DNA from: Rhizobacter sp.
GTDB lineage: Bacteria; Pseudomonadota; Gammaproteobacteria; Burkholderiales; Burkholderiaceae_C
Assembly: GCA_025361845.1 (NCBI GenBank)
Contig: JANYJL010000014.1
Span: forward strand, 1-33,566
Direction: 5' to 3'
Length of the DNA stretch: 33,566 nt
In this document: positions 5,779 through 19,752 of the stretch, one piece after another
How the letters are laid out: each line of letters starts with the position of its first letter
Position numbering within the stretch: the first letter of the stretch is position 1
Position numbers and translations under genes: made by a program
The notes under the pieces: model-generated
Told to the model about the DNA's origin: nothing
The model's input: the letters and a program-made list of their open reading frames with translations, nothing else
The model's database searches: none

Positions 5779-6231
5779 TCACTTCGGCAGCAACACGCTG
5801 TCGATCACGTGGATCACGCCGTTGTCTGCCACGATGTCGGTGGCGGTGACGTTCGAGTCATTCACCTTCACGCCACCCATGGTGCTGACCATCAGGTCGG
5901 TGCCCTGCACCGTGCGCACGCTGCCCGGCTTCACGTCCGCGGCCATCACCTTGCCGGCAACCACGTGGTATGTCAGCACGGCGGTGAGCTTGGCCTTGTC
6001 AGCCAGCAGCGCATCCAGCGTTGCTTTCGGAATCTTCGCGAAGGCCGCATCGGTCGGCGCGAACACGGTGAACGGGCCCTTGCCCTTGAGCGTATCGACC
6101 AGGCCGGCGGCTTGCAGCGCGGCGGCCAGGGTCTTGAAATTGCCCGCGCCGACGGCGGTGTCGACGATGTCCTTGGCCTGCGCGCCCAGCGCGGCGAACG
6201 AGAGGGCGGTGATGGCAAACAGTTTTTTCAT
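5779..6231 (-). CDS. Secreted fasciclin (FAS1) domain protein
   Basis: A 150-residue protein consisting of a Sec signal peptide ([19 protein letters not shown]) and one FAS1 domain. The H1 motif [13 protein letters not shown], the central YHVV and the H2-type ending [13 protein letters not shown] are all present. Single-FAS1 secreted proteins are common in bacteria and are thought to act in adhesion or cell-surface and matrix binding; no enzymatic activity is known. A GGAG ribosome site lies just upstream of the ATG. It follows a second fasciclin gene by 52 nt on the same strand, so the two are probably co-transcribed. The paralogues share the FAS1 core but differ in anchoring: this one is soluble, the other a lipoprotein. 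Confidence 0.93.
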
Positions 6232-6283
6232 GAGGAACTCCAGAGTTGAAAAGCAGAGCGAAAAAAAGCGGGGCAGGCGTCGT

Positions 6284-6784
6284 TCAAGGCGCCGGCAGGA
6301 TGACCTTGTCGATCACGTGAACCACGCCGTTCGAGGCGGCCACGTCGGTGGCGATGATGTTGGCGGTGCGCCCGCGCTGGTCGGTGATGACGAAAGCTGA
6401 ACTGACCGTGAAGGTTTCACCTTCGACCGTCTTGATCGGCATGTTCACCGGCACCTGGGCCTTCAGGACCTTGCCCGAGACCACGTGGTAGGTCAGCACC
6501 TTGGTCAGCAGCGGCTTGTCGGCCAGCAGCGCGGCCTTGCTGATGCCGAGTTCGGTGAGCAAAGCGGCGAAGGCGTCGTTGGTCGGTGCGAACACGGTGA
6601 ACGGGCCGGGGCCGGACAAGGTGGTGGCCAGGTCCGCCGCCACCACCGCCTCGACCAGGATGCTGAGATTCGCCTGCGTCTTGGCAATGCCGACGATGTT
6701 CGGGGTGGGGTCGTCGCTACCGCCGCAAGCTGCGACGAGTGCCACGGTCGAAAGCGCTGCCAGGCGCTTGAGCCAATTTATCAT
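6284..6784 (-). CDS. Fasciclin (FAS1) domain lipoprotein
   Basis: A 166-residue protein with a lipoprotein signal: [20 protein letters not shown], where VAAC is the lipobox and Cys20 the predicted lipidated residue, followed by GGSDDPTP. Aspartate is not at +2, so outer-membrane sorting is expected. The FAS1 domain carries [17 protein letters not shown] and [13 protein letters not shown]. It is first in a two-gene unit with the secreted fasciclin. A ribosome site GGAG sits 8 nt upstream. The intergenic region toward the divergent tetR gene holds a possible promoter (TTGACT at 6849-6854, weak -10 at 6826-6831) with a palindrome in its spacer. Control by the TetR protein is therefore plausible, though unproven. 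Confidence 0.93.
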
Positions 6785-9274: not shown

Positions 9275-10009
9275 TCAGACCGAGAAGCGTCCCACCAGCC
9301 GGTAGCGTGCCCCGGGGTGATAGAGCCGCGCGATCGAGGCCACGGCCCCTTGCGACACGGTGCGGCGCGACACCATCAGCAGCGCACTGCCAACCGCCAC
9401 GTCCAGCCGACGCGCTTGTTCCGCGTCGGCCAGCACGGCTTCGACCACCTGCTCGGCTTCGGTCAGCGGCGCATGTTCGAACAACACATGCGAAGGCGTG
9501 ACCCGGGTGTAGTCCTGCGCCAGCAGGTCGGGCGCCAGGGCCGGGTTGACATGCCGGTCTTCGAGCTGGATGGGCACGCCGTTTTCGCAGTGAACCAGCT
9601 CGATGCGCACCACCGCCGCGCCCTTGCGCAGGCGCATCGCCGCGGCAACATCGGCGTCGGCGCGCACCGGCGCGACGCTGCACACACGCGTGCTGTGCAC
9701 GTGGCCGCGCTCGGCGATCTCCTCGTGGATGTCGCGCACCTGGAGCAGGTTGGAAATCGGGTGCAGCTCGGCCACGTAGGAGCCCGAACCCTGGCGGCGC
9801 TCGATCAGGCCTTCGTCTTCGAGTTCACGCAGCGCGCGGTGCACCGTCATGCGAGCGCAGGCAAATTCCAGCACCAGTTCGCGTTCGGAGGGCAGCTTCG
9901 TCCCGGGTTGCCAGCCGCCTTCGGCGATGCACCGTTTCAGCGAGGCCTTCACAGCTTCATAGGGCAAGGTCCGGGGGCGCTTTCGGGTACGTTCAGTCAC
10001 GGCGTTCAT
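9275..10009 (-). CDS. hutC: Histidine utilisation repressor, GntR/HutC family
   Basis: A 244-residue repressor with a GntR winged helix (about 15-80; [40 protein letters not shown] split across helices and wing) and a C-terminal UTRA ligand-binding domain (about 95-238). HutC proteins bind urocanate or its product and release the operator. It is divergent from hutH, and a 20-bp operator lies between them, which supports both the name and autoregulation. On its own strand TAGAAT (10021-10016) precedes the ATG by only 6 nt with no ribosome site, suggesting a leaderless transcript. Its operator lies about 25 bp upstream of that -10. Confidence 0.95.
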
Positions 10010-10045: not shown

Positions 10046-10065
10046 AAAGTTGTCTAGACCACTTT
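10046..10065. promoter_or_regulatory. HutC operator in the hutC-hutH intergenic region
   Basis: AAAGTTGTCTAGACCACTTT is a palindrome broken at a single base pair. It is identical at 19 of 20 positions to the core of the perfect palindrome upstream of hutU. The GT-CTAG-AC core fits the half-site spacing of GntR/HutC-subfamily operators. A TAAAGT -10-like hexamer for hutH (10045-10050) overlaps its left end, so binding would block hutH transcription directly. Confidence 0.8.
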
Positions 10066-10087
10066 GTCGAACCCGACAACACGCGCC

Positions 10088-11593
10088 ATGACCACGACGA
10101 CCCACACGCTGACTCCGGGCAGCCTCACACCCGCCCTGCTCGAACTCGCCGCGGCCGGCGGCTTGCGCGTGCGCATCGCCGAATCGGCCCGCGCCGGCAT
10201 CGAAGCGAGCGTCGCCACGGTGCGCACCCTGGTCTCGCGCGAAGCGCCGGTCTACGGCATCAACACCGGCTTCGGCAAGCTGGCGCAGACACGCATCGAC
10301 AACTCCCAGCTCGCGCAGTTGCAAAAGAACCTGGTGCTCTCGCACAGCGCCGGCATCGGCAAGCCCTTCGAAGCGCCGATCGTGCGGCTGATGCTGCTGC
10401 TGAAGGCAGCGAGCCTGGCGCATGGTGTGTCGGGCGTGCGCCCACAGATCATCGATGCGCTGCTCGCCTTGCTGGCCGCCGACGTGCTGCCGGTCGTGCC
10501 CGAGAAGGGCTCGGTCGGCGCCTCGGGCGATCTGGCGCCGCTCGCGCACATGGCGGGTGTGTTGATCGGCGTGGGCGAAGCCTTTGTCGACGGCAGGCGT
10601 TTGCCCGCCGCGCAGGCTCTCACGCACGCCGGCCTCACGCCGCTCGAACTCGGCCCGAAAGAAGGCCTCGCGCTGCTGAACGGCACGCAGGCTTCGACCG
10701 CGCTCGCGATCCACGCGGCGCAGCGCCTGAACCGCTTGTTCGACACCGCGGTCGGTGTCGGCGCGATGACGGTCGATGCCGCCAAAGGCTCGGACACGCC
10801 CTTCGACGACCGCATCCACGCGGTGCGCGGCCAGCGCGGCCAACGCGAGGTGGCGACGCGCTACCGCGAGTGGCTGGCCGGCAGCGCGCTGCGCCAGTCG
10901 CACCTCGATTGCGAAAAGGTGCAAGACCCGTACTGCCTGCGTTGCCAGCCGCAGGTGATGGGCGCCTGCCTCGACCAGATGCGCCACGCCTGGGACATTT
11001 TGCTGATCGAAGCGAACGGCGTCTCCGACAACCCGCTGGTGTTCGCCGACACGCTCGAAGCCCTCTCGGGCGGCAACTTCCACGCCGAGCCGGTGGCTTT
11101 CGCGGCCGACAACCTGGCGCTTGCCATCGCCGAGGTTGGCGCACTCGCCGAGCGCCGCACCGCCATGCTGATGGACCCGGGCCTGTCGAACCTGCCCGCC
11201 TTCCTGATCGAGAACGGCGGCTTGAATTCAGGCTTCATGATCGCGCAGGTGACCTCGGCCGCGCTCGCCTCCGAGAACAAGTCGCTGGCACACCCGGCGA
11301 GTGTCGATTCACTGCCCACCTCGGCCAACCAGGAAGACCATGTGTCGATGGCGACCTACGCCGCGCGGCGTCTGCACGCCATGCTGGACAACAGCGCCGG
11401 CATCGTCGCGATCGAATGGCTGGCGGCGGCGCAGGCGCTCGACTTTCAGCGCCCGCTGCGTTCGTCGAATGCGATCGAGGCCCTGCACGCGCGCCTGCGC
11501 GCCCGCGTGCCGTTCCTCGATGTGGACCGCCTGATGGCGCCCGACATCGAAGCCGCGACCGAGCTGGTGGAACGCGGGCCGGTGCCGGCCTGA
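10088..11593 (+). CDS. hutH: Histidine ammonia-lyase
   Basis: Converts L-histidine to trans-urocanate and ammonia, the first step of histidine breakdown. The protein is 501 residues, the normal length. The Ala-Ser-Gly triad that cyclises to the MIO prosthetic group is at 145-147 in [24 protein letters not shown] (56-65) carries the catalytic tyrosine. GLALLNGTQ, the FHAEPVAF block and the NQEDHVS motif are also present. I start at the ATG at 10088 (MTTTTHTL); a TTG eight codons upstream lies inside the operator and is unlikely. No clear ribosome site precedes the ATG. It is divergent from hutC and separated from the other hut enzymes by unrelated genes. Confidence 0.97.
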
Positions 11594-11616
11594 ACCCTGC
11601 TCGATCTTCGCGCGGT

Positions 11617-11814
11617 TCAGCCGCCCACCGCGTTCCTGCGCGGCGCGTGGACCCAGACCACTTTCACGCCGTGCAGCGCTGCTGCGCGTTCGATCGCGGC
11701 CATGCGCGCAAGGTCGATGTCGTCAGCGCGCAGCGCTTGCGGGGACGGGGCCGGCAGGGCAGCACAACCGGTCAGGGCGATCAGGGCCAGGGCGGCCAGG
11801 ATTCTGTGGGTCAT
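11617..11814 (-). CDS. Small predicted lipoprotein
   Basis: A 65-residue product beginning MTHRILAALALIALTGC, a compact lipoprotein signal with lipobox LTGC and Cys17 as the lipidated residue. A GGGAG ribosome site lies about 8 nt upstream of the ATG at 11814; an in-frame extension of 63 codons further upstream has no support. The mature part (ADDIDLARMAAIERAAALHGVKVVWVHAPRR, broken here by no known motif) is a helix followed by a beta strand. I do not recognise the family. It is convergent with hutH, with 23 nt between stops. The 95 nt on its other side, up to the phosphopantetheinyl transferase stop, hold nothing I can identify. Confidence 0.65.
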   Translation of the reverse strand: MTHRILAALALIALTGCAALPAPSPQALRADDIDLARMAAIERAAALHGVKVVWVHAPRRNAVGG

Positions 11815-11909
11815 GGGTGCACTCCCAAGCGGTGGGTTGGTCACAACAGTAGGTGGCTGCCGGGTTGGCGTCAAGGCGCGTCGCCGGCGAGCGCGTACCG
11901 CAACGACCC

Positions 11910-12710
11910 TCAGGCCAAGTACGGGCTGACGCGCAAGGACGGTTGAGGCGGCCACCGCGTGACCGTGAGCACGCCGGGCGGCAAGGCGGTCGCCAGCGTG
12001 CAACTCAGCTCGGCTGGGGCTTCGATGCGGGTCAGGCTCGCTCGCGCAATGGCCAGCCCGGCCGGGTGATTCAAGGCCACCGCGATGTCACACCCGCGGT
12101 CGGCCTCGGCCCCGGGCACGACCTCGATCGAATCGGGCGCGAGGCTCATGCCCAAACCATTGAGTTTCATGAAGGCTTCTTTCGCAGTCCAGTGAGCGAA
12201 GAAGCGGCCGGCCCGCAGCGCGGGCGGCGTCGCGGCGAGTTGGCGCTGCTCCGCCGCGGTCATCGTGGTCGGGACCAGGGCCTGCCAGCCGGTGCCGTCG
12301 AAGCGCTCCAGGTCGATGCCCACCCAGCTGTCCGTGGACAAAGCCAACGCAGCCCAGTCGCCGGAGTGCGACAGGCTGAAATCGACCGCACCGCAGGCAT
12401 TGCTCACCCAGGGCCGGCCGTGGGAGCCATGCGCCAACTGGATCTCGCTCGGCGCCATGCCGCAATACCGGCCGAGCAACTCGCGCAGCGCCGTGTGGCG
12501 CTGGATGAAGCGGCGGCGGTGTTCCGCAAAGACAAAGCGTGCAGCCACTCGTCTTTCTTCTGCAGACAGCGGCGACGCCCGAAGCGACGAATCACATTCA
12601 TGCGGCGAGAGATGGCACAGAACGACCTCGACACGCGGCCCGCCCACCGGCGGCGGCTGCCGGCCCGACGACAGACCGGGCAAGCCGAGCTGGTGACGAT
12701 CGTGCGGCAC
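11910..12710 (-). CDS. 4'-phosphopantetheinyl transferase, Sfp/Gsp type
   Basis: Transfers the phosphopantetheine arm of CoA to a serine of carrier proteins (acyl, peptidyl or aryl). At about 266 residues it has the length of the Sfp type rather than of AcpS. The conserved blocks are GIDLERF (magnesium-binding acidic residues) and WTAKEAFMKLNGLGMSL (the W-x-x-KEA motif), plus GRPWV and FSLSHSGD in the middle. I use the GTG at 12710, which has a GAGGG-type site about 7 nt upstream; no better ATG precedes the conserved region. Its start is 9 nt after the stop of the truncated GT87-like gene. No carrier protein, NRPS or PKS gene is in view, so the substrate is unknown. Confidence 0.88.
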   Translation of the reverse strand: MPHDRHQLGLPGLSSGRQPPPVGGPRVEVVLCHLSPHECDSSLRASPLSAEERRVAARFVFAEHRRRFIQRHTALRELLGRYCGMAPSEIQLAHGSHGRPWVSNACGAVDFSLSHSGDWAALALSTDSWVGIDLERFDGTGWQALVPTTMTAAEQRQLAATPPALRAGRFFAHWTAKEAFMKLNGLGMSLAPDSIEVVPGAEADRGCDIAVALNHPAGLAIARASLTRIEAPAELSCTLATALPPGVLTVTRWPPQPSLRVSPYLA

Positions 12711-12719
12711 CCGGCGCCC

Positions 12720-13499
12720 TCAGCTCCCGGCAAGTGGCTGGCGCGTGCGCCAGCTGCCCAGGGCATCGGCACGCACCGGCTGGAGGCTCGCAACGCTGCC
12801 GCTGTGCAAACGCCAGTAGAGCAACAGGCCCAGCGTGGCCAGGGCAGCGAACCACATGTGCGAACCCAGCAAGCCTTGCAGCGGCCCGGTGAACACATGC
12901 TGGGGCGCGAGCCACACATTGGCCATCGCGACGAAGCCGAAACCGAGTGCGACCCATGCTGCACGCGGTGCATTCGCCTGGCTCGCCGTCACGCCCAGCA
13001 GCAAGGCGAAGATCGCGATGAAACAACCGTAGTGGTGCTCCCAGCCCACCGGCGATGCGATCGTCAGCGCCGCGAGCATGGTGGCGAAGTCGAGATCCCG
13101 GCGCACCGTGGCCGCACGCGCCGGCGGCAGCCACAGCGCGCCGCCGAGCACCGGCAAAGCACCGAGCAAGGTGCCCCAGCGCACCACCGGGTGGTAGGTC
13201 GGAAAGGCGCCCGGCACCCAGTTGACCGGTTCACCCGTCGAGAGCAGGCGGTTCAGCACGCCGTTGAGCGTCTGGTTGCCCCAGAACACCTCGCCGGTCT
13301 GCGACAGGCCGCGCAGGAAGGCGATGTATTCCAGATGCAGGTCGAGCCCGTACGACGCCAGCGCCGCGGCGGTGCCGAGGCCGAAGACGGTCAGCAGCCC
13401 GGCGCAGAACCGCCCCTCGCGGCGCAACGCGCCCCACGCACGCACTGCGGCTTGAGCAGGCAGCACAGACCAGAACCGCTTCTTCAACTGGATCGACAT
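12720..13499 (-). pseudogene. GT87/DUF2029-type polyprenol-linked mannosyltransferase, N-terminally truncated
   Basis: An open frame of 259 codons encoding about six membrane helices and the region NQTLNGVLNRLLSTG. This motif and the later SPVGWEHHYG match the second half of GT87 (DUF2029) membrane glycosyltransferases, which use polyprenyl-phosphate sugars. Full-length members are about 400 residues, with the NQ-LNG block well past the middle; here it is near residue 76. Roughly 150-170 N-terminal residues are therefore missing, including the catalytic first loops. The first 15 residues (MSIQLKKRFWS) are antisense to the opposing gene and not family-like. The break coincides with that of the head-to-head gene at about 13455-13470. 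An active product is unlikely, though the frame remains open. Confidence 0.72.
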
Positions 13500-13905
13500 C
13501 GGCCGCGTGAGCGACTACTGGAGCGCGCTGCAACGGGTGCTGCGCGGCGAAGTGGCGCAGATGGACATGCCCGGCCGCGAGGTGCAGACGGGTGTGTGGG
13601 TCGGCCTGAACACACGCATCGCCTGGGGCGACGTGAACATCGAGGGCGAGGTCTACATCGGCTCCGGCGTCGAGATCGAACCCGGCGTGACCATTCAAGG
13701 CCCGACCTGGATCGGCTCGGGCAGCCACCTGCGCGAAGGCTCGACCGTCGTGCGCAGCGTGCTCTTCGAGTACACGCGCATCGCGCAAGCGCAGAACTTC
13801 CACGAGATGATCGTCGCGCCGCAGTACTGCGTGGACCGTGCGGGCACGACCTTCTACATCGGCGACGAGAGCTGCCCGCTGCGTTGGGGCGATGCGCGCG
13901 GTTGA
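13468..13905 (+). pseudogene. Sugar nucleotidyltransferase, C-terminal left-handed beta-helix remnant
   Basis: The frame reads DQNRFFNWIDIGRVSDYW, which is the end of an NTP-transferase (mannose-1-phosphate guanylyltransferase-like) catalytic domain (the WIDIG-x-x-DYW block). It is followed by hexapeptide-repeat turns (VYIGSGVEIEPGVTIQGPTWIGSG) and a family-like C-terminus FYIGDESCPLRWGDARG. An in-frame TGA at 13453-13455 stops any extension upstream, so the Rossmann-like catalytic domain with the GGxGTR signature is gone. A shorter frame could start at GTG 13507. Full-length relatives are about 350 residues; about 145 remain. It is head to head with the truncated GT87 gene, and both breaks fall at the same place. 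Both suggest a lost polysaccharide function. Confidence 0.75.
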
Positions 13906-13923
13906 GGCCGACGGCCCGGCGCG

Positions 13924-14634
13924 TCAGTAAGCGATGCGGTAGCGGTGGCCCTTGGTGGACAGCACTGCTTCTTTCAAACGGATCTCTTCGAGCATGACCT
14001 CGGGCGCGACCTTGTCGCCTTCACGCAGCACCTGGCCATTGACGATCAGCATGCGGCTCTCCGCGTTCTGCGAGTAGCTCGCGCCGCCGACCACCAGGGT
14101 CGGCAGGCCGCGCTGGATGTCGTCGGGCAACTCGCTCGCCGTGGGCAAACGCGATGCGGCCAGCGCTGCCGCTGGCCCGTTGACGGCTGACGCGGCAGCG
14201 GCGACGGCACGTGGCGTTGCGGATGCCGCTGGCTTCGCTGGCGACACGGGCTTGCGGACGGCCGCCACCGCGGCCTGAGTGGGCACGGTCGGCGGCGCCA
14301 CGGCAGGCGGTGGGGCCGGCAAGGCCGCTGCGGGCACGAGTGGCTGCGGCGCTTCGGCCAGGGGCGGCGGTGCCGGTGTGACGGGCAGCGGCGCGGCGGC
14401 GGCACGGGCCGCATCGGCAGCGTCCGGCGCTGCGTCGTGCCCCATCCATTGCCAAGCCAGCACCACCACCAACACGGCGGCGAGCGTGAGGCTCACACCC
14501 ACCCACAGGCGCGAGGGCGGCGCCGCCTTCGCCTCGGCCGAGCCCAGCGGCACCGGCTGCGCATGCACGCCGGGCACGGCGCCGCGTTCGCGTTCCGAAT
14601 CGGCGCGGCGCAGGGCGTCGAGGATGTAGGACAT
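13924..14634 (-). CDS. gspB: Type II secretion system protein GspB/ExeB
   Basis: A 236-residue inner-membrane protein with the characteristic start MSYILDALRRADSERERGAVP, one membrane helix near residues 43-63, a long Pro/Ala-rich periplasmic linker (about 70-165), and a C-terminal GspB domain (LPTLVVGGASYSQNAESRMLIVNGQVLREGD split over two strands, ending GHRYRIAY). GspB works with the ATPase GspA to insert the secretin GspD through the peptidoglycan. The ATG at 14634 is preceded by the gspA stop with only 4 nt between, so the pair is translationally close. The main gsp operon is not in the window; an isolated gspAB pair is usual. Confidence 0.92.
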   Translation of the reverse strand: MSYILDALRRADSERERGAVPGVHAQPVPLGSAEAKAAPPSRLWVGVSLTLAAVLVVVLAWQWMGHDAAPDAADAARAAAAPLPVTPAPPPLAEAPQPLVPAAALPAPPPAVAPPTVPTQAAVAAVRKPVSPAKPAASATPRAVAAAASAVNGPAAALAASRLPTASELPDDIQRGLPTLVVGGASYSQNAESRMLIVNGQVLREGDKVAPEVMLEEIRLKEAVLSTKGHRYRIAY

Positions 14635-14638
14635 CGGC

Positions 14639-15715
14639 TTACTTCTCCGTCTTGGCGCGTGGCGCAGTGATCGGCGCAGTGGTGAGTGCGATCGAGGCCG
14701 GCGCTGCGGCCGGCACCACCGCACGCGCCTTGTCGGCCGCCGCGGAGGCCAGCGCCGTCGCGTGGCGCGGGCCGGCGTCCATCGCCCAGCTGATCGCCCC
14801 GAACAGCGCCGCGCCCATCACGAGCCCGAGGCCCCAGACCAGCGCCTTCGGCAGCGCCATGCGCGCCCACCAGCCGGCCAGGCCGCGGCCCGAAGGCTTG
14901 TCGAACACCTCGGCCGCCGCCTTGTCGACGATCTCCACATCGACGCGCGATTTGCCGGCCGAGTACGCACCGAGCAGCGCCCGATCGCACAGCAGGTTGA
15001 TGCGCCGCGGTACGCCGCGCGACCATTCGTGGATGCGCAGGCGCGCCGGCCGGTCGAAGGGCAGCGGCGAGTTCATGCCGGCCACGGCCATGCGGTGGCG
15101 GATGTACTGCGCGGTCTCGTTCTCCGACAGCGCGCCGAGGTGGAAACGGGCGATCACGCGCTGCGCCAATTGCTCGAGCTCGGGCCGCGCGAGCATCTCC
15201 CGCAGCTCCGGCTGGCCGATCAGGATGATCTGCAAGAGCTTGCGTTCGCTGGTCTCCAGGTTCGTCAGCAGGCGCAACTGCTCCAGCACATCGGCCGAGA
15301 GGTTCTGCGCCTCGTCGATGATGAGCACGTTGTTCTGCCCGACCGCGTGGGTGCGCAGCAGGTACTCGTTGATCGGGTCGAGCAGGTCCTTCACCGTCGC
15401 CGTGCCCGGCTCGCGCGCGGGCCCCGGGATGTGGAACTCGTCGCACACCGACTTCAGCAACTCCGTCACCGTGAGCTTGGGGTTGAAGATGTAGGCAACG
15501 TTGCAGCGCTTGGGCACCTGCTCCAGGAAGCAGCGGCACACCGTGGTCTTGCCCGCGCCGATCTCGCCGGTCAGCAGCACGAAGCCGCCGCCACCGGCCA
15601 GGCCGTAGAGCAGGTGGGCGAGCGCCTCCCGATGGCGCTCGCTCATGAAGAGGTAACGGGGGTCGGGCGCGATCGAAAACGGCTCTTGTTTCAGGCCGAA
15701 GAATTGCGCGTACAT
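14639..15715 (-). CDS. gspA: GspA/ExeA-type AAA+ ATPase of type II secretion
   Basis: A 358-residue protein beginning MYAQFFGLKQEPFSIAPDPRYLFMS, the standard start of ExeA ATPases. Walker A is GEIGAGKTT (about 50-58), Walker B is VLIIDEAQNL (about 129-138), and an arginine-finger region and the helical lid follow (RGVPRRINLLCDRALL). A single membrane helix sits near residues 285-307, followed by a short Ala-rich periplasmic tail without the peptidoglycan-binding domain of longer ExeA proteins. It pairs with gspB directly downstream. Its start is only 18 bp from the divergent hutG start. On this strand TATTCT precedes the ATG by 7 nt and no ribosome site is seen, so a leaderless message is possible. 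Confidence 0.92.
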   Translation of the reverse strand: MYAQFFGLKQEPFSIAPDPRYLFMSERHREALAHLLYGLAGGGGFVLLTGEIGAGKTTVCRCFLEQVPKRCNVAYIFNPKLTVTELLKSVCDEFHIPGPAREPGTATVKDLLDPINEYLLRTHAVGQNNVLIIDEAQNLSADVLEQLRLLTNLETSERKLLQIILIGQPELREMLARPELEQLAQRVIARFHLGALSENETAQYIRHRMAVAGMNSPLPFDRPARLRIHEWSRGVPRRINLLCDRALLGAYSAGKSRVDVEIVDKAAAEVFDKPSGRGLAGWWARMALPKALVWGLGLVMGAALFGAISWAMDAGPRHATALASAAADKARAVVPAAAPASIALTTAPITAPRAKTEK

Positions 15716-15721
15716 GGGGTG

Positions 15722-15728
15722 GAGAATA
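15722..15728. promoter_or_regulatory. Candidate shared -10 element of divergent gspA and hutG
   Basis: The 7-bp sequence GAGAATA reads GAGAAT toward hutG, with 6 nt to its GTG. On the other strand it reads TATTCT toward gspA, with 7 nt to its ATG. Each matches four of six -10 consensus bases. Any other promoter would have to lie inside the opposite coding region. Confidence 0.35.
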
Positions 15729-15733
15729 GCGCG

Positions 15734-16537
15734 GTGGACATCTGCACCCTCACCTCGGGCACGGCGCCGCTGCTGATCTCGTTCCCGCACTCGGGCACGC
15801 ACATCCCGGATGCGCTGGCCGCGCGGATGACCGAGGCCGCGCTGCAACGCGCCGATGTGGACTGGCATCTGCCCCAGCTCTACGCCGCCTTCGCCCGCGC
15901 GCTCGGCGCGAGCACGCTGATCGCGCACCACGCGCGCCATGTGATCGACCTGAACCGCCCGCCCGAGGACACGAGCCTGTATCCGGGACAGGACGTGACC
16001 GGCCTGCTGCCACTCGACACCTTCCGCAAGGAGCCGCTGTACCGGCCCGGCCAGGCGCCCGATGCGGCCGAGACGAACGAACGCCGCGAGCGGTACTGGC
16101 GGCCGTACCACGATGCCTTGCGGACCGAGCTGGAAAGGCTCCGCGCGCTGCACGGCGCCGTCGTGCTCTGGGACGCGCATTCCATCGCCAGCGTGATGCC
16201 GCGGTTCTTCGCCGGCAAGCTGCCCGACCTGAACCTGGGCACCGACGAGGGCCGCGCCTGCGCGCCGGGTGTGCAGTCCGCAGTCGAGGCGGTGATGGCT
16301 TCGCAGACCCGCTACACCCACATCAGCAACGCGCGCTTCAAGGGCGGCCACATCACGCGCCACTACGGCCAGCCCGAGGTGGGCATCCACGCCTTGCAGA
16401 TGGAGATGTGCCAGAGCACCTACATGATCGAGGCCGCGCCCTTCGGCTACCGCGCCGACCGCGCGGCGCAGGTGCAGCCGCTACTGCAAGCGATGCTGAA
16501 GGCCGCCATCGAGGCCGCCGTGGATGCGTGCGCGTAG
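15734..16537 (+). CDS. hutG: N-formylglutamate deformylase
   Basis: Hydrolyses N-formyl-L-glutamate to glutamate and formate, the last step of the five-step histidine pathway. The protein is 267 residues, of the FGase (pfam05013-type) family, not the arginase-like formiminoglutamase that shares the hutG name. Blocks seen: [12 protein letters not shown] near the start, [28 protein letters not shown] and [24 protein letters not shown]. The histidines and acidic residues in these are the metal-site candidates. The start is GTG at 15734 (read VDICTL), with no Shine-Dalgarno and a GAGAAT box 6 nt upstream. Its 3' end overlaps hutI, on the opposite strand, by 57 nt. Presence of hutF fits this enzyme type. 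Confidence 0.93.
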
Positions 16538-17716
16538 CGGGCTTGCGCCGATCGCATAGGCCAGCTCGGCCGGGTGGTCGATGTTCCACAGGCACAGGTC
16601 GGCACGCTTGCCGATCTCGACCGTGCCATGTGTCGCCAACAAACCCAGCGCGCGCGCGGCGTGGCGCGTGACGCCGAGCAGGGCTTCGGCCGGCGTCATC
16701 CGGAACAGCGTGCAGGCCATGTTGAGCATCAGCGGCAGATGCGTCGTCGGGCTGGTGCCGGGGTTGCAATCGGTGGCCACGGCCATCGGCACACCATGGC
16801 GGCGGAACAGCGCGATCGGTGGCACGTGCGTGTCGCGCAGAAAGTAGTAGGCGCCGGGCAGCATCACCGCCACCGTGCCGGCACGCGCCATCGCCGCCAC
16901 GCCGGCTTCATCCACGAACTCCAGGTGATCGGCCGAGAGCGCGCCGAACTCGGCCGCCAGCGCCGCGCCGCCTTGGTTGGACAACTGCTCGGCATGCAGT
17001 TTCACGGGCAGGCCATGCGCTTGCGCGGCCTCGAACACCCGCCGCGTTTGCGCGGACGTGAAGCCGATGTTTTCGCAGAAGGCATCGACCGCATCGGCCA
17101 GCTTCAGGCGCGCCGCTTCCGGAATGATGTGCTGCACGACATGGTCGATGTAGTCGTCCGCACGGCCGGTGAATTCGGGTGGCAGCGCGTGCGCGGCGAG
17201 CAGGGTCGTCACCACGTTCACGGGCTGGTGCTGGCCGAGCTCACGTGCCACCTGCAGACACTTCAACTCGGCCTTCAGCGAGAGGCCGTAGCCCGACTTG
17301 ATCTCGACAGTCGTGACTCCGTGCTGCATCAGGCTCGCCAGCCGCCGAGTCGACTGCGCGAGCAGGTCGCCCGCGTTCGCCTCCCGTGTGCGCTGCACGG
17401 TCGACAGGATGCCGCCGCCGGCGCGCGCAATGTCTTCATAGCTCGCGCCTTCGAGCCGCAGCTCGAACTCGCGTGCGCGGTCGCCGGCAAACACGAGGTG
17501 GGTGTGGCAATCGATCAGGCCGGGTGTGAGCAGGGCGCCTTCGGCGTCCAGCTCCTGCGCGCCGCGCGCGTTCGGGTCGAGCTGAGCCATCGTGCCCAGG
17601 CCGGCGATCTGGCCGTGCGCGACGGCGAGAAAGGCCGGCGGCGAAACCGCGCAGGCATCGTCCGCGCAGGTCACGACACGCGCATTGCGGATCAGCAGGT
17701 CGATCGTCGGCGTCAT
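16481..17716 (-). CDS. hutI: Imidazolonepropionase
   Basis: Opens the ring of 4-imidazolone-5-propionate to give N-formimino-L-glutamate, the third step. The protein is 411 residues of the amidohydrolase superfamily. [12 protein letters not shown] holds the His-X-His metal ligands, IKSGYGL and the [12 protein letters not shown] block follow, and [12 protein letters not shown] contains the catalytic aspartate. The ATG at 17716 overlaps the stop of the lysE gene in an ATGA arrangement, implying translational coupling. An upstream in-frame extension is ignored. The family-like C-terminus ends near RARIHGG; the last ten or so residues run antisense to the end of hutG and look like an unselected tail. 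No HutC operator was seen upstream of the operon. Confidence 0.96.
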
Positions 17717-18336
17717 CGTGTCGCTCTTCCAGATATCGCGGTGTACAGGCCCAGCCCCAGGTAGACCGCAGCGGTGACATGCCGCCCCCACACGGAGCCG
17801 GCACCGAGGGCCGGTGCCGCCGCGGCGGCGACCAGAACATAGACCGTGTCGGTGCTCGCCGCAATCAACACGAAGCCAGCCCCGAACGCGGCGCTCTGCA
17901 ACAGGGCGGAAGCCGCCGGGTCCATGAACTGCGGCAAGAAGGCAGCGAAGAACAAGGCCGTCTTCGGGTTGAGCAGCGCCACGACAAAACCTTCGCGCAG
18001 GATGCGGCCGGCTTCGGGCGGCGCGAACCCCGCATCGACGGGCGCAGGTGCGAGGGGATGCAACGCGCGCCAGCCCAGGTAAAGCAGATAGGCCGCGCCC
18101 ACGAGCTTCACGACCGTGAAGGCGACCGACGACACCGCCAACAACGCGGCCAGCCCCAGCGAGGCGCCCATCGCATTGCCCAGGTTGCCGAGCCCCACGC
18201 CCGCCACCGACAGCAGCCCGGCCCGCCGCCCCTGCGCCACCGTGCGCGTGACGATGTAGACCACGCCCGGCCCCGGCGTGGCCGCGAGCACCAGGCTGGC
18301 GAGGGCGAAGGCCCAGGGGCCGAGGCTTGGTGTCAT
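17713..18336 (-). CDS. LysE/RhtB-family amino-acid exporter
   Basis: A 207-residue inner-membrane protein with six predicted helices. The family signature [23 protein letters not shown] is near the N-terminus and [22 protein letters not shown] in the middle. Members export amino acids or their derivatives by proton antiport; substrates cannot be read from sequence. The start MTPSLG is chosen because the 35 codons upstream are not family-like and overlap the previous gene. It lies 10 nt after the small membrane-protein gene and its stop overlaps the hutI start by 4 nt. The coupling to hutI suggests, as inference only, relief of excess histidine, glutamate or an intermediate. Confidence 0.92.
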
Positions 18337-18346
18337 CGGCCTGGTT

Positions 18347-18856
18347 TCACGCTCTGGCAGGGGCCAGCGGCTGGGTCGCCCTCGACCGCAACCAGCGAAG
18401 CTGTGTACCCAGGCCCACGACAAACAGCAGCAGGAGCGCACCGGCGATCGACTTCAACTCGGGCGCCTCGGCGTTCGGCAACAGCGGCTGGCCGGGGGGC
18501 AGGCGCGTCAAGGATTCGGTGAAGCCGGGAATCATGTGGAAGAGCATGGTGGCCGAGTAGCAGGCAGCCTGCGCCTGACGCGACCAGCGCCCCAGCACAC
18601 CCGAGAATTCAGCGGCCGCGCCGGCAGCGAGCGCGAGCAGGGTGAGGATCGACAGCGCATGAGGCGGGCCGAAGCCTCCGTGCTGGAAGATACCCAGGCC
18701 CGTCGCAGCGGTGAGCAGGGTCGTCAGCAGATAGGTGCGGCCGAGCGAACTCCGCGCCGAGATTTCCTTGTCGCGGGCGAGCACCCAGAACCCGCTGACC
18801 ACCGCGACCAGGCTGATGGCGGTGTGGACCATTCCCAGCGTTGTCAAACCCAGCAT
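18347..18856 (-). CDS. Four-helix membrane protein of unknown function
   Basis: A 169-residue protein with four or five hydrophobic helices: about residues 4-25, 40-58, 65-90, 95-112 and a last one near 139-160. The start is the ATG at 18856, where AAGGAG lies 7 nt upstream. Charged loops contain VLARDKEISARSSLGRTY and HGGFGPPHA; histidines in HTA, QHGG and FHM lie at helix ends and recall small heme- or quinone-binding membrane proteins, but I cannot assign a family. A loose resemblance to DUF2306-type proteins is possible. It is first gene of an operon with lysE and hutI (10 nt and a 4-nt overlap respectively). Confidence 0.75.
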   Translation of the reverse strand: MLGLTTLGMVHTAISLVAVVSGFWVLARDKEISARSSLGRTYLLTTLLTAATGLGIFQHGGFGPPHALSILTLLALAAGAAAEFSGVLGRWSRQAQAACYSATMLFHMIPGFTESLTRLPPGQPLLPNAEAPELKSIAGALLLLFVVGLGTQLRWLRSRATQPLAPARA

Positions 18857-19221
18857 CGTGATCTCCTTGAAGGTGCAGGCCGTGACTCGATGCCATTGAC
18901 GATCGACTTCGCCGAGCGTCTCACAGACGCAGCCCATTCCGTGAGGCTTCGATGAGCCTGGCCAGGCGCAGAACGGGGCGGGGGATTCGAAGAATCTCTG
19001 CATGCGAACCTGCCCAGCGCCGGATGTGCGCGAGCTCGACTCCGGATCTGGCTGAGGTACACACGATAGCCGGAGCCATGGTCAACGCGCAATTCCGACA
19101 CCCTGTCGCAAGCGGCCGACCGACCGACCGACCGAAGCAAAAACTGTCGATCTGGCTTGCAAGCGATGGCATAAAGCAAGCAGGATCGCGCGGATGTGCC
19201 GCGCAAGGAAAGGAAGTGGTG
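18857..19221. other. 365-nt intergenic stretch, no recognised gene
   Basis: This gap lies between divergent genes (membrane protein-lysE-hutI leftward, RibD/DHFR-like rightward). Open frames exist on both strands but none has a recognisable domain, and their codon use is not like the flanking genes. It contains a (CCGA)5 microsatellite and is visibly less GC-rich than its surroundings near 19136-19221. I find no HutC-type palindrome. It may be a recombination border, since a truncated antitoxin-like gene lies at the far side of the next gene. Confidence 0.5.
19116..19135. repeat. Tetranucleotide microsatellite (CCGA)5
   Basis: Five perfect tandem copies of CCGA, about 86 bp before the start of the RibD/DHFR-like gene. 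Such runs can change length by slipped-strand mispairing. It is not inside a supported coding region, so any effect would be on promoter spacing. Confidence 0.85.
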
Positions 19222-19752
19222 ATGGCCAAACTCGTGTTCGGAATGAACCAGTCCCTGGACGGCTACGTCGATCACACGGCGTTTGCGCCGGGCCCCACGC
19301 TCTTCCGCCACTTCGTCGAGGAGGCTCAGCGGCAGGCGGGCAGTGTGTACGGTCGCCAGATGTACGAGGTCATGCGCTACTGGGACGACGATCAACCTGA
19401 ATGGGGTGCCGAGGAACGCGCCTTCGCAGCCGCGTGGCGGAAGCAGCCAAAATGGGTCGTCTCGCGCTCCTTGAAGTCGGTCGGCCCCAACGCCAGCCTT
19501 GTCGGGAATGATCTTGAGGGCGCGATCCGCGAGCTGAAGGCCGAGCGCGACGGGGAGATCGAAGTTGCCGGCCCGAACTTGGCGCAAAGCCTCACCGAAC
19601 TCGGCCTGATCGATGAGTATCGAATCTACCTGCACCCCGTCGTGGTCGGTCGCGGCAAGCCCTATTTCGCCGGACCCCGGCCGCGCCTACGCCTTGTGGC
19701 CAATGAGCGGATGAGCGAGGACGTGATCAGGCTGACCTACGTCCCTGGGTGA
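19222..19752 (+). CDS. RibD C-terminal / dihydrofolate reductase-like protein
   Basis: A 176-residue protein of the RibD-C/DHFR superfamily. It begins MAKLVFGMNQSLDGYVDHTAF, the usual substrate-site strand and loop (FGMNQSLDGYV), and has GRQMYEVMRYW, WVVSRSLKS, a dinucleotide-site region IEVAGPNLAQSLTELGLIDEY and the ending HPVVVGRGKPYF. Such proteins probably reduce a pteridine- or flavin-related substrate with NADPH; the substrate is unknown and it is not a housekeeping folA. AAGGAAGTGGTG provides a ribosome site before the ATG at 19222. GC and codon use are visibly lower than in flanking hut genes. A truncated antitoxin-like gene overlaps its end, which suggests acquisition by transfer. 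Confidence 0.88.
   Translation: MAKLVFGMNQSLDGYVDHTAFAPGPTLFRHFVEEAQRQAGSVYGRQMYEVMRYWDDDQPEWGAEERAFAAAWRKQPKWVVSRSLKSVGPNASLVGNDLEGAIRELKAERDGEIEVAGPNLAQSLTELGLIDEYRIYLHPVVVGRGKPYFAGPRPRLRLVANERMSEDVIRLTYVPG

What the first reader, a model, noticed from the sequence alone, without database searches (positions are those of the whole stretch)
13440..13510. Head-to-head truncation scar: GT87 transferase against sugar nucleotidyltransferase
The minus-strand GT87-like gene lacks its N-terminal 150 or so residues. The plus-strand nucleotidyltransferase starts abruptly at NRFFNWIDIGRVSDYW just after an in-frame stop. Both similarities break within about 20 bp of one point (about 13455-13470). A single deletion that removed the shared promoter and both 5' halves of a divergent pair explains this. 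Both genes belong to polysaccharide or glycan synthesis.
Basis: partly seen in the sequence, partly recalled or inferred. Interest (0 to 1): 0.55.

Follow-up and report, generated by a model that had tools for sequence, protein, structure and literature searches.

The report
Junction of two broken sugar-enzyme genes
Two unrelated sugar-processing genes have both lost their front halves and are joined head to head at one point, inside a part of a histidine-breakdown gene cluster whose contents vary between related bacteria; this is an ordinary scar of DNA loss or rearrangement.

Summary
On the minus strand (12720-13460) lies the 3' half of a GT87-type glycosyltransferase gene. On the plus strand (13471-13905) lies the 3' 39% of a sugar nucleotidyltransferase (NTase) gene. 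Similarity stops at about 13458 (GT87) and at 13471 (NTase), so the junction lies in about 13461-13470. GT87 has lost about 205-250 residues (not 150) and the NTase 224 of 367. Neither missing half was found elsewhere in the 91%-complete assembly. The NTase remnant shows no frameshift, indel or acceleration, so the join is recent, or an artefact.

A deletion is the simplest cause, but no fetched relative shows these genes as a divergent pair, and no promoter evidence exists. The whole block (PPTase, GT87 remnant, NTase remnant, gspB, exeA) sits between a small lipoprotein gene and an N-formylglutamate amidohydrolase gene inside a hut (histidine utilisation) cluster. In 15 of 16 comparable relatives that interval holds an ABC transporter; in the sixteenth it is almost empty. 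Hut genes on both sides argue against a random contig chimera, although reads could not be checked. Verdict: an ordinary dead-gene junction in a variable slot; low interest.

The parts
13461..13470 (.). junction: bases assigned to neither parent gene with confidence
   Evidence: NTase DNA similarity starts at 13471; GT87 protein similarity ends at about Pro14 of the ORF, 13458-13460
12720..13460 (-). 3' remnant of a GT87-type glycosyltransferase gene, natural stop kept
   Evidence: 29-36% identity to the C-terminal halves of full-length GT87 proteins
13471..13905 (+). 3' remnant of a sugar nucleotidyltransferase gene (left-handed beta-helix part only), natural stop kept
   Evidence: 61-80% identity to the C-terminal 144 residues of 55 family places; Hexapep repeat
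13453..13455 (+). in-frame stop codon just upstream of the NTase remnant
11910..12710 (-). Sfp-type 4'-phosphopantetheinyl transferase gene, downstream of the GT87 remnant (start 9 bases after its stop)
13924..14634 (-). gspB, type II secretion assembly factor (start taken at the Met of MSYILDALRRAD)
   Evidence: T2SSB above the Pfam cut-off; NCBIfam GspB below its cut-off; 18 bases between its stop and the NTase stop
14639..15715 (-). exeA/gspA-type ATPase gene, the only close copy in the assembly
   Evidence: start ATG read at 15713-15715
10064..11593 (+). hutH, left flank of the variable slot
   Evidence: TIGR01225 above cut-off
11617..11814 (-). small lipoprotein-like gene next to hutH, left border of the slot
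   Evidence: weak matches at the same place in L196 and L200; no Pfam family
15734..16537 (+). N-formylglutamate amidohydrolase (FGase) gene, right border of the slot
   Evidence: start GTG read at 15734
16481..17791 (-). hutI (imidazolonepropionase, by position and amidohydrolase domain)
9275..10009 (-). hutC (GntR/UTRA regulator)

Best explanation
An illegitimate recombination event, most simply one deletion of at least about 1.3 kb, joined the 3' half of a GT87 glycosyltransferase gene (minus strand) to the 3' 39% of a sugar nucleotidyltransferase gene (plus strand). Both remnants are most likely dead as enzymes: the NTase lost its N-terminal region with most of the catalytic domain, and the GT87 protein lost its N-terminal half. 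Shown: the truncations, the common point, full-length relatives, and the absence of the missing halves from the assembly. Inferred: that it was one deletion, that it is in the organism's DNA, and that it is recent. The join lies in cargo that occupies a variable slot of the hut cluster, where most relatives have an ABC transporter.
For: Both similarities break within about 10-13 bp. Relatives are full length: 54 of 55 NTase matches lie in open frames of at least 367 aa, and 5 of 5 GT87 places in open frames of at least 488 aa. The NTase 5' half finds only 29-45% identical paralogs in the own genome, and the GT87 N-half finds nothing. The NTase remnant has no indel in 144 residues, is as close to relatives as they are to each other, and has dN/dS of 0.25 to the nearest relative with GC3 0.91, so decay has hardly begun. 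Hut genes flank the block on both sides in the order seen in relatives. Sequence left of 13471 does not resemble the NTase parent by more than about 1 bp, so no long shared word is visible that would make a de Bruijn assembler join two molecules there.
Against: The window is one contig of a 399-contig, 90.65% complete assembly and reads cannot be seen. Missing decay would fit an artefact as well as a recent event. No locus fetched shows GT87 and NTase as neighbours, so the deletion may have been far larger, or the join may come from another rearrangement. GT87 relatives are only about 30-35% identical, so its break is known to about 10-30 bp only.
Confidence: 0.7

Rival explanations
1. The junction is an assembly or strain-mixture artefact: the contig joins two true pieces wrongly at about 13466, perhaps skipping a longer insert.
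For: Fragmented 399-contig assembly, 90.65% complete. No decay in the NTase remnant. The adjacencies PPTase-GT87, GT87-NTase and NTase-gspB are not seen in any other fetched locus. The closest named relative, L186, has a contig that ends at the same slot.
Against: Hut genes on both sides in the expected order and orientation. No shared word longer than about 1 bp seen on the NTase side. Missing halves were not found on another contig.
Confidence: 0.17
2. The two genes were joined by translocation or several rearrangements into the hut slot, not by one deletion of a divergent pair; each fragment arrived with a different neighbour (GT87 with PPTase, NTase with gspB-exeA). This is a variant of the real-junction reading and overlaps with it.
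For: No fetched locus from another genome holds two of the units PPTase, GT87, NTase and exeA-gspB together. gspB-exeA lies elsewhere in relatives. The slot is variable.
Against: No insertion-sequence gene was found among the Pfam-scanned ORFs and there are no convincing flanking repeats. One deletion needs fewer steps for the GT87/NTase point itself.
Confidence: 0.35
3. The short proteins are functional: the NTase remnant as a stand-alone beta-helix protein and the GT87 remnant as a membrane protein.
For: Both frames are open and the NTase remnant is conserved so far.
Against: The start codons available (GTG 13507, ATG 13499) lie inside or antisense to the old NTase frame, with no promoter-like match in 13200-13750 and no ribosome-binding motif seen by eye. 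No relative has such a short form among the 55 near-complete NTase matches, apart from G306, whose frame holds an internal TAA.
Confidence: 0.04

Closest known systems
Bacterial pseudogenes formed by truncating deletions (gene remnants)
   Same: Two gene 3' parts with intact stops, lost 5' parts, a sharp common break and full-length homologs elsewhere
   Different: Both partners are broken at one head-to-head point; no decay yet in the NTase remnant
Sugar-1-phosphate nucleotidyltransferase, PF00483 plus left-handed beta-helix (C-terminal part)
   Same: C-terminal 144 residues up to 79% identical, no gaps
   Different: First 224 of about 367 residues are missing
Glycosyltransferase family 87 (PF09594)
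   Same: 29-35% identity to the C-terminal halves of five GT87 proteins
   Different: N-terminal half, including roughly 40-50% of the Pfam domain, is missing; no Pfam hit of its own
hut cluster of Rhizobacter/Piscinibacter-type Burkholderiales
   Same: UPF0149-hutC-hutH ... FGase-hutI ... hutF-hutD-hutU order
   Different: The ABC transporter between hutH and FGase is replaced by PPTase-GT87 remnant-NTase remnant-gspB-exeA; LysE and RibD_C genes lie between hutI and hutF

Membership tests
Truncation pseudogene pair | Homologs are full length | tested here: met
   (the A. lipoferum GT87 CDS spans 1461 bases)
Truncation pseudogene pair | Both similarities end at one point | tested here: met
   about 13458-13471
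Truncation pseudogene pair | Missing halves not found elsewhere in the genome | tested here: met
   in a 90.65% complete assembly
Truncation pseudogene pair | Junction present in the organism's DNA (reads) | not testable with these tools
   no reads held
Deletion of a divergent gene pair with a shared promoter | Relatives keep the intact divergent pair | tested here: not met
   0 of 46 NTase loci and 0 of 12 GT87 loci hold the other gene
Deletion of a divergent gene pair with a shared promoter | Microhomology at the junction | tested here: inconclusive
   at most about 1 bp on the NTase side by comparison with relatives; the parental GT87 sequence is unknown
Active sugar nucleotidyltransferase | N-terminal PF00483 domain | tested here: not met
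   absent in the window fragment, present in L077
Active GT87 glycosyltransferase | Complete GT87 domain | tested here: not met

The most novel reading that the evidence does not exclude
The short interval between the hutH-side lipoprotein and the FGase gene is a recurrent exchange site in Rhizobacter/Piscinibacter-type bacteria. A presumed histidine-uptake ABC transporter there was replaced in this lineage by type II secretion accessory genes plus glycan-gene debris. In a Piscinibacter MAG (L191) a MurA-like gene that neighbours gspB-exeA in four genomes of genus g135 also sits in this interval, so cargo from one source may have entered the slot in more than one lineage.
Probability: 0.15. 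Interest if true: 0.35.

Novelty: new member of a known kind. Interest (0 to 1): 0.12.

Why it matters
Mainly for annotation: the two short ORFs should be marked as remnants and not as a small glycosyltransferase and a small acyltransferase-like protein. If the slot is a true exchange site, it would also explain why this organism's hut cluster lacks the ABC transporter that relatives keep there.

Tried and rejected
A genome-contig scan with the GT87 fragment found no relative. Searching 40 near relatives with each fragment gave no GT87 beyond the own copy and three other genomes with an NTase match, one of them weak and covering only residues 59-127. Plasmid searches gave only distant GT87 (Azospirillum, about 31-34%) and two distant NTase matches, with no neighbour of the other kind annotated in the two regions opened. 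Repeats in 11590-15760 were short, most of them imperfect, and none flanks the block as a target duplication would. The promoter scan of 13200-13750 found nothing, as expected by chance too. Reading the slot ORFs on the hutH strand of L171 and L175 first gave a HipA-like gene and proteins without a Pfam family; the conserved genes are on the other strand and are an ABC transporter.

Considered and rejected: frameshift or sequencing error instead of truncation (the DNA left of 13471 does not resemble the relatives' NTase genes); old decayed pseudogenes.

Full report
What was checked. The window is a whole contig (C90, 33,566 bases) of a 4.5-Mb assembly in 399 contigs, 90.65% complete with 2.28% contamination; no other genome of its genus is held. 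Named relatives of its hutC gene are Rhizobacter, Piscinibacter and related Burkholderiales records, many of them MAGs.

The NTase fragment. The plus-strand frame from 13456 to the stop at 13905 gives 149 residues, closed upstream by TGA at 13453-13455. In 349 family genomes, 57 have a match, the own genome included. Of 60 non-own places, 55 align from query residue 5-6 to 148-149, and 54 of these 55 lie in open frames of at least 367 aa; the exception, G306, has an internal TAA. The other five places are weak or cut: G175 47% over part, G201 at a contig edge, and G008, G346 and G106 distant. Full proteins are about 367 aa; the one scanned (L077) carries PF00483 plus a hexapeptide repeat. The window keeps only the repeat part. 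In L077 the match starts at residue 225. At DNA level 11 relatives agree with the window from 13471 (CAGAACCGC...) but not to the left, except perhaps for one base.

The GT87 fragment. The minus-strand ORF 12720-13499 has family relatives at only 5 places in 3 genomes besides its own (of 349), 31-36% identical, in open frames of 488-644 aa; all five are GT87 by Pfam. Alignments begin at ORF residues 11-14 (13458-13469). Matching is weak up to Trp22 and clear after it. The relatives carry about 205-250 further residues before that point, allowing for likely starts. The first part of the window ORF (MSIQLKKRFW...) is antisense of the NTase gene.

The NTase 5' half of a relative finds in the own genome only four paralogs at 29-45% identity, and the GT87 N-half finds none. 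The second statement rests on one joined query with a distant relative's sequence.

State of the remnants. The NTase remnant aligns without gaps over 144 residues. It is 79% identical to the nearest relative (L072), while L072 and L079, from two relatives in one genus, are 72% identical. dN and dS to L072 are 0.14 and 0.56, and GC3 is 0.91. So either the truncation is recent or the join is an artefact. The GT87 remnant has no near relative for such a test; it is an open frame with GC3 0.85.

Surroundings. Left of the block: UPF0149, hutC, hutH and a small lipoprotein-like gene. Right of it: FGase, hutI, LysE, RibD_C, hutF, hutD by position, hutU. In seven relatives fetched by hutH, the interval hutH-FGase holds three conserved genes: an NMT1-type binding protein, a permease and an ATPase. 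Four further hutH loci could not be used (no FGase in the stretch, or another order). Of 25 hutC loci I gave 21; the four Vibrio and Mangrovibacter loci were left out. Of these 21, 15 contain both hutH and FGase in this order, and 14 of the 15 have the transporter between them; L196 has only about 0.5 kb there, with a lipoprotein-like match. Six were not usable: L186, L198 and L203 cut by contig ends; L197 without FGase within 8.4 kb; L204 and L205 with another arrangement. The transporter's permease finds only paralogs of up to 47% identity in the own genome. That the transporter takes up histidine is a guess from its place. Besides the transporter the slot holds further variable genes in some relatives: HipA-like (L189/L175), arginase and a LysR regulator (L188), a MurA-like gene (L191) and a DsbA-like gene (L201).

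gspB-exeA. The pair has one close copy of exeA in the own genome, here, and lies elsewhere in relatives with changing neighbours. In four loci of genus g135 its neighbour is a MurA-like gene; the same kind of gene, about 70-72% identical, sits in the hut slot of L191. This hints at shared cargo but proves nothing.

Is it a divergent pair? In one search, loci from other genomes held NTase in 46, PPTase in 29, GT87 in 12, and gspB and/or exeA in 50 (48 with both, one with each alone). No locus held two of these units together. Several loci overlap or come from one genome, and many have flanks of only 1.5 kb. So the ancestral neighbourhood of the two broken genes is unknown, and 'shared promoter' is a guess.

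Artefact or real? For real: hut synteny on both sides, no visible shared word of assembler length on the NTase side, and the missing halves not found on other contigs. Against: no reads, a fragmented assembly, no decay, and adjacencies not seen elsewhere. I put about four in five on a real junction, and somewhat less on a real junction made by deletion.

Conclusion. It is an ordinary remnant junction of a known kind, in an interval whose contents vary between relatives. Interest is low.

Noticed in passing
11815-15733: Variable slot in the hut cluster: 15 of 16 comparable relatives have an NMT1-type ABC transporter here, L196 has about 0.5 kb, and the window has PPTase-GT87 remnant-NTase remnant-gspB-exeA.
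   Followed up: partly
17713-19752: LysE-type translocator and RibD_C genes lie between hutI and hutF; in the Rhizobacter/Piscinibacter-type relatives with both genes in the stretch these two lie close together.
   Followed up: no
L191:7087-8409: A MurA-like (EPSP_synthase domain) gene in the hut slot of a Piscinibacter MAG is 71% identical to the gene next to gspB-exeA in G134 and is found beside gspB-exeA in three more g135 genomes.
   Followed up: partly
12710-12722: The only Sfp-type PPTase match in the assembly starts 9 bases after the stop of the GT87 remnant, so it may have lost its upstream promoter with the truncation.
   Followed up: no
5779-6784: Two fasciclin-domain proteins in tandem on the minus strand.
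   Followed up: no
L186:1-62: The closest named relative by hutC (a Rhodoferax MAG) has a contig that ends right after hutH, at the same slot.
   Followed up: no
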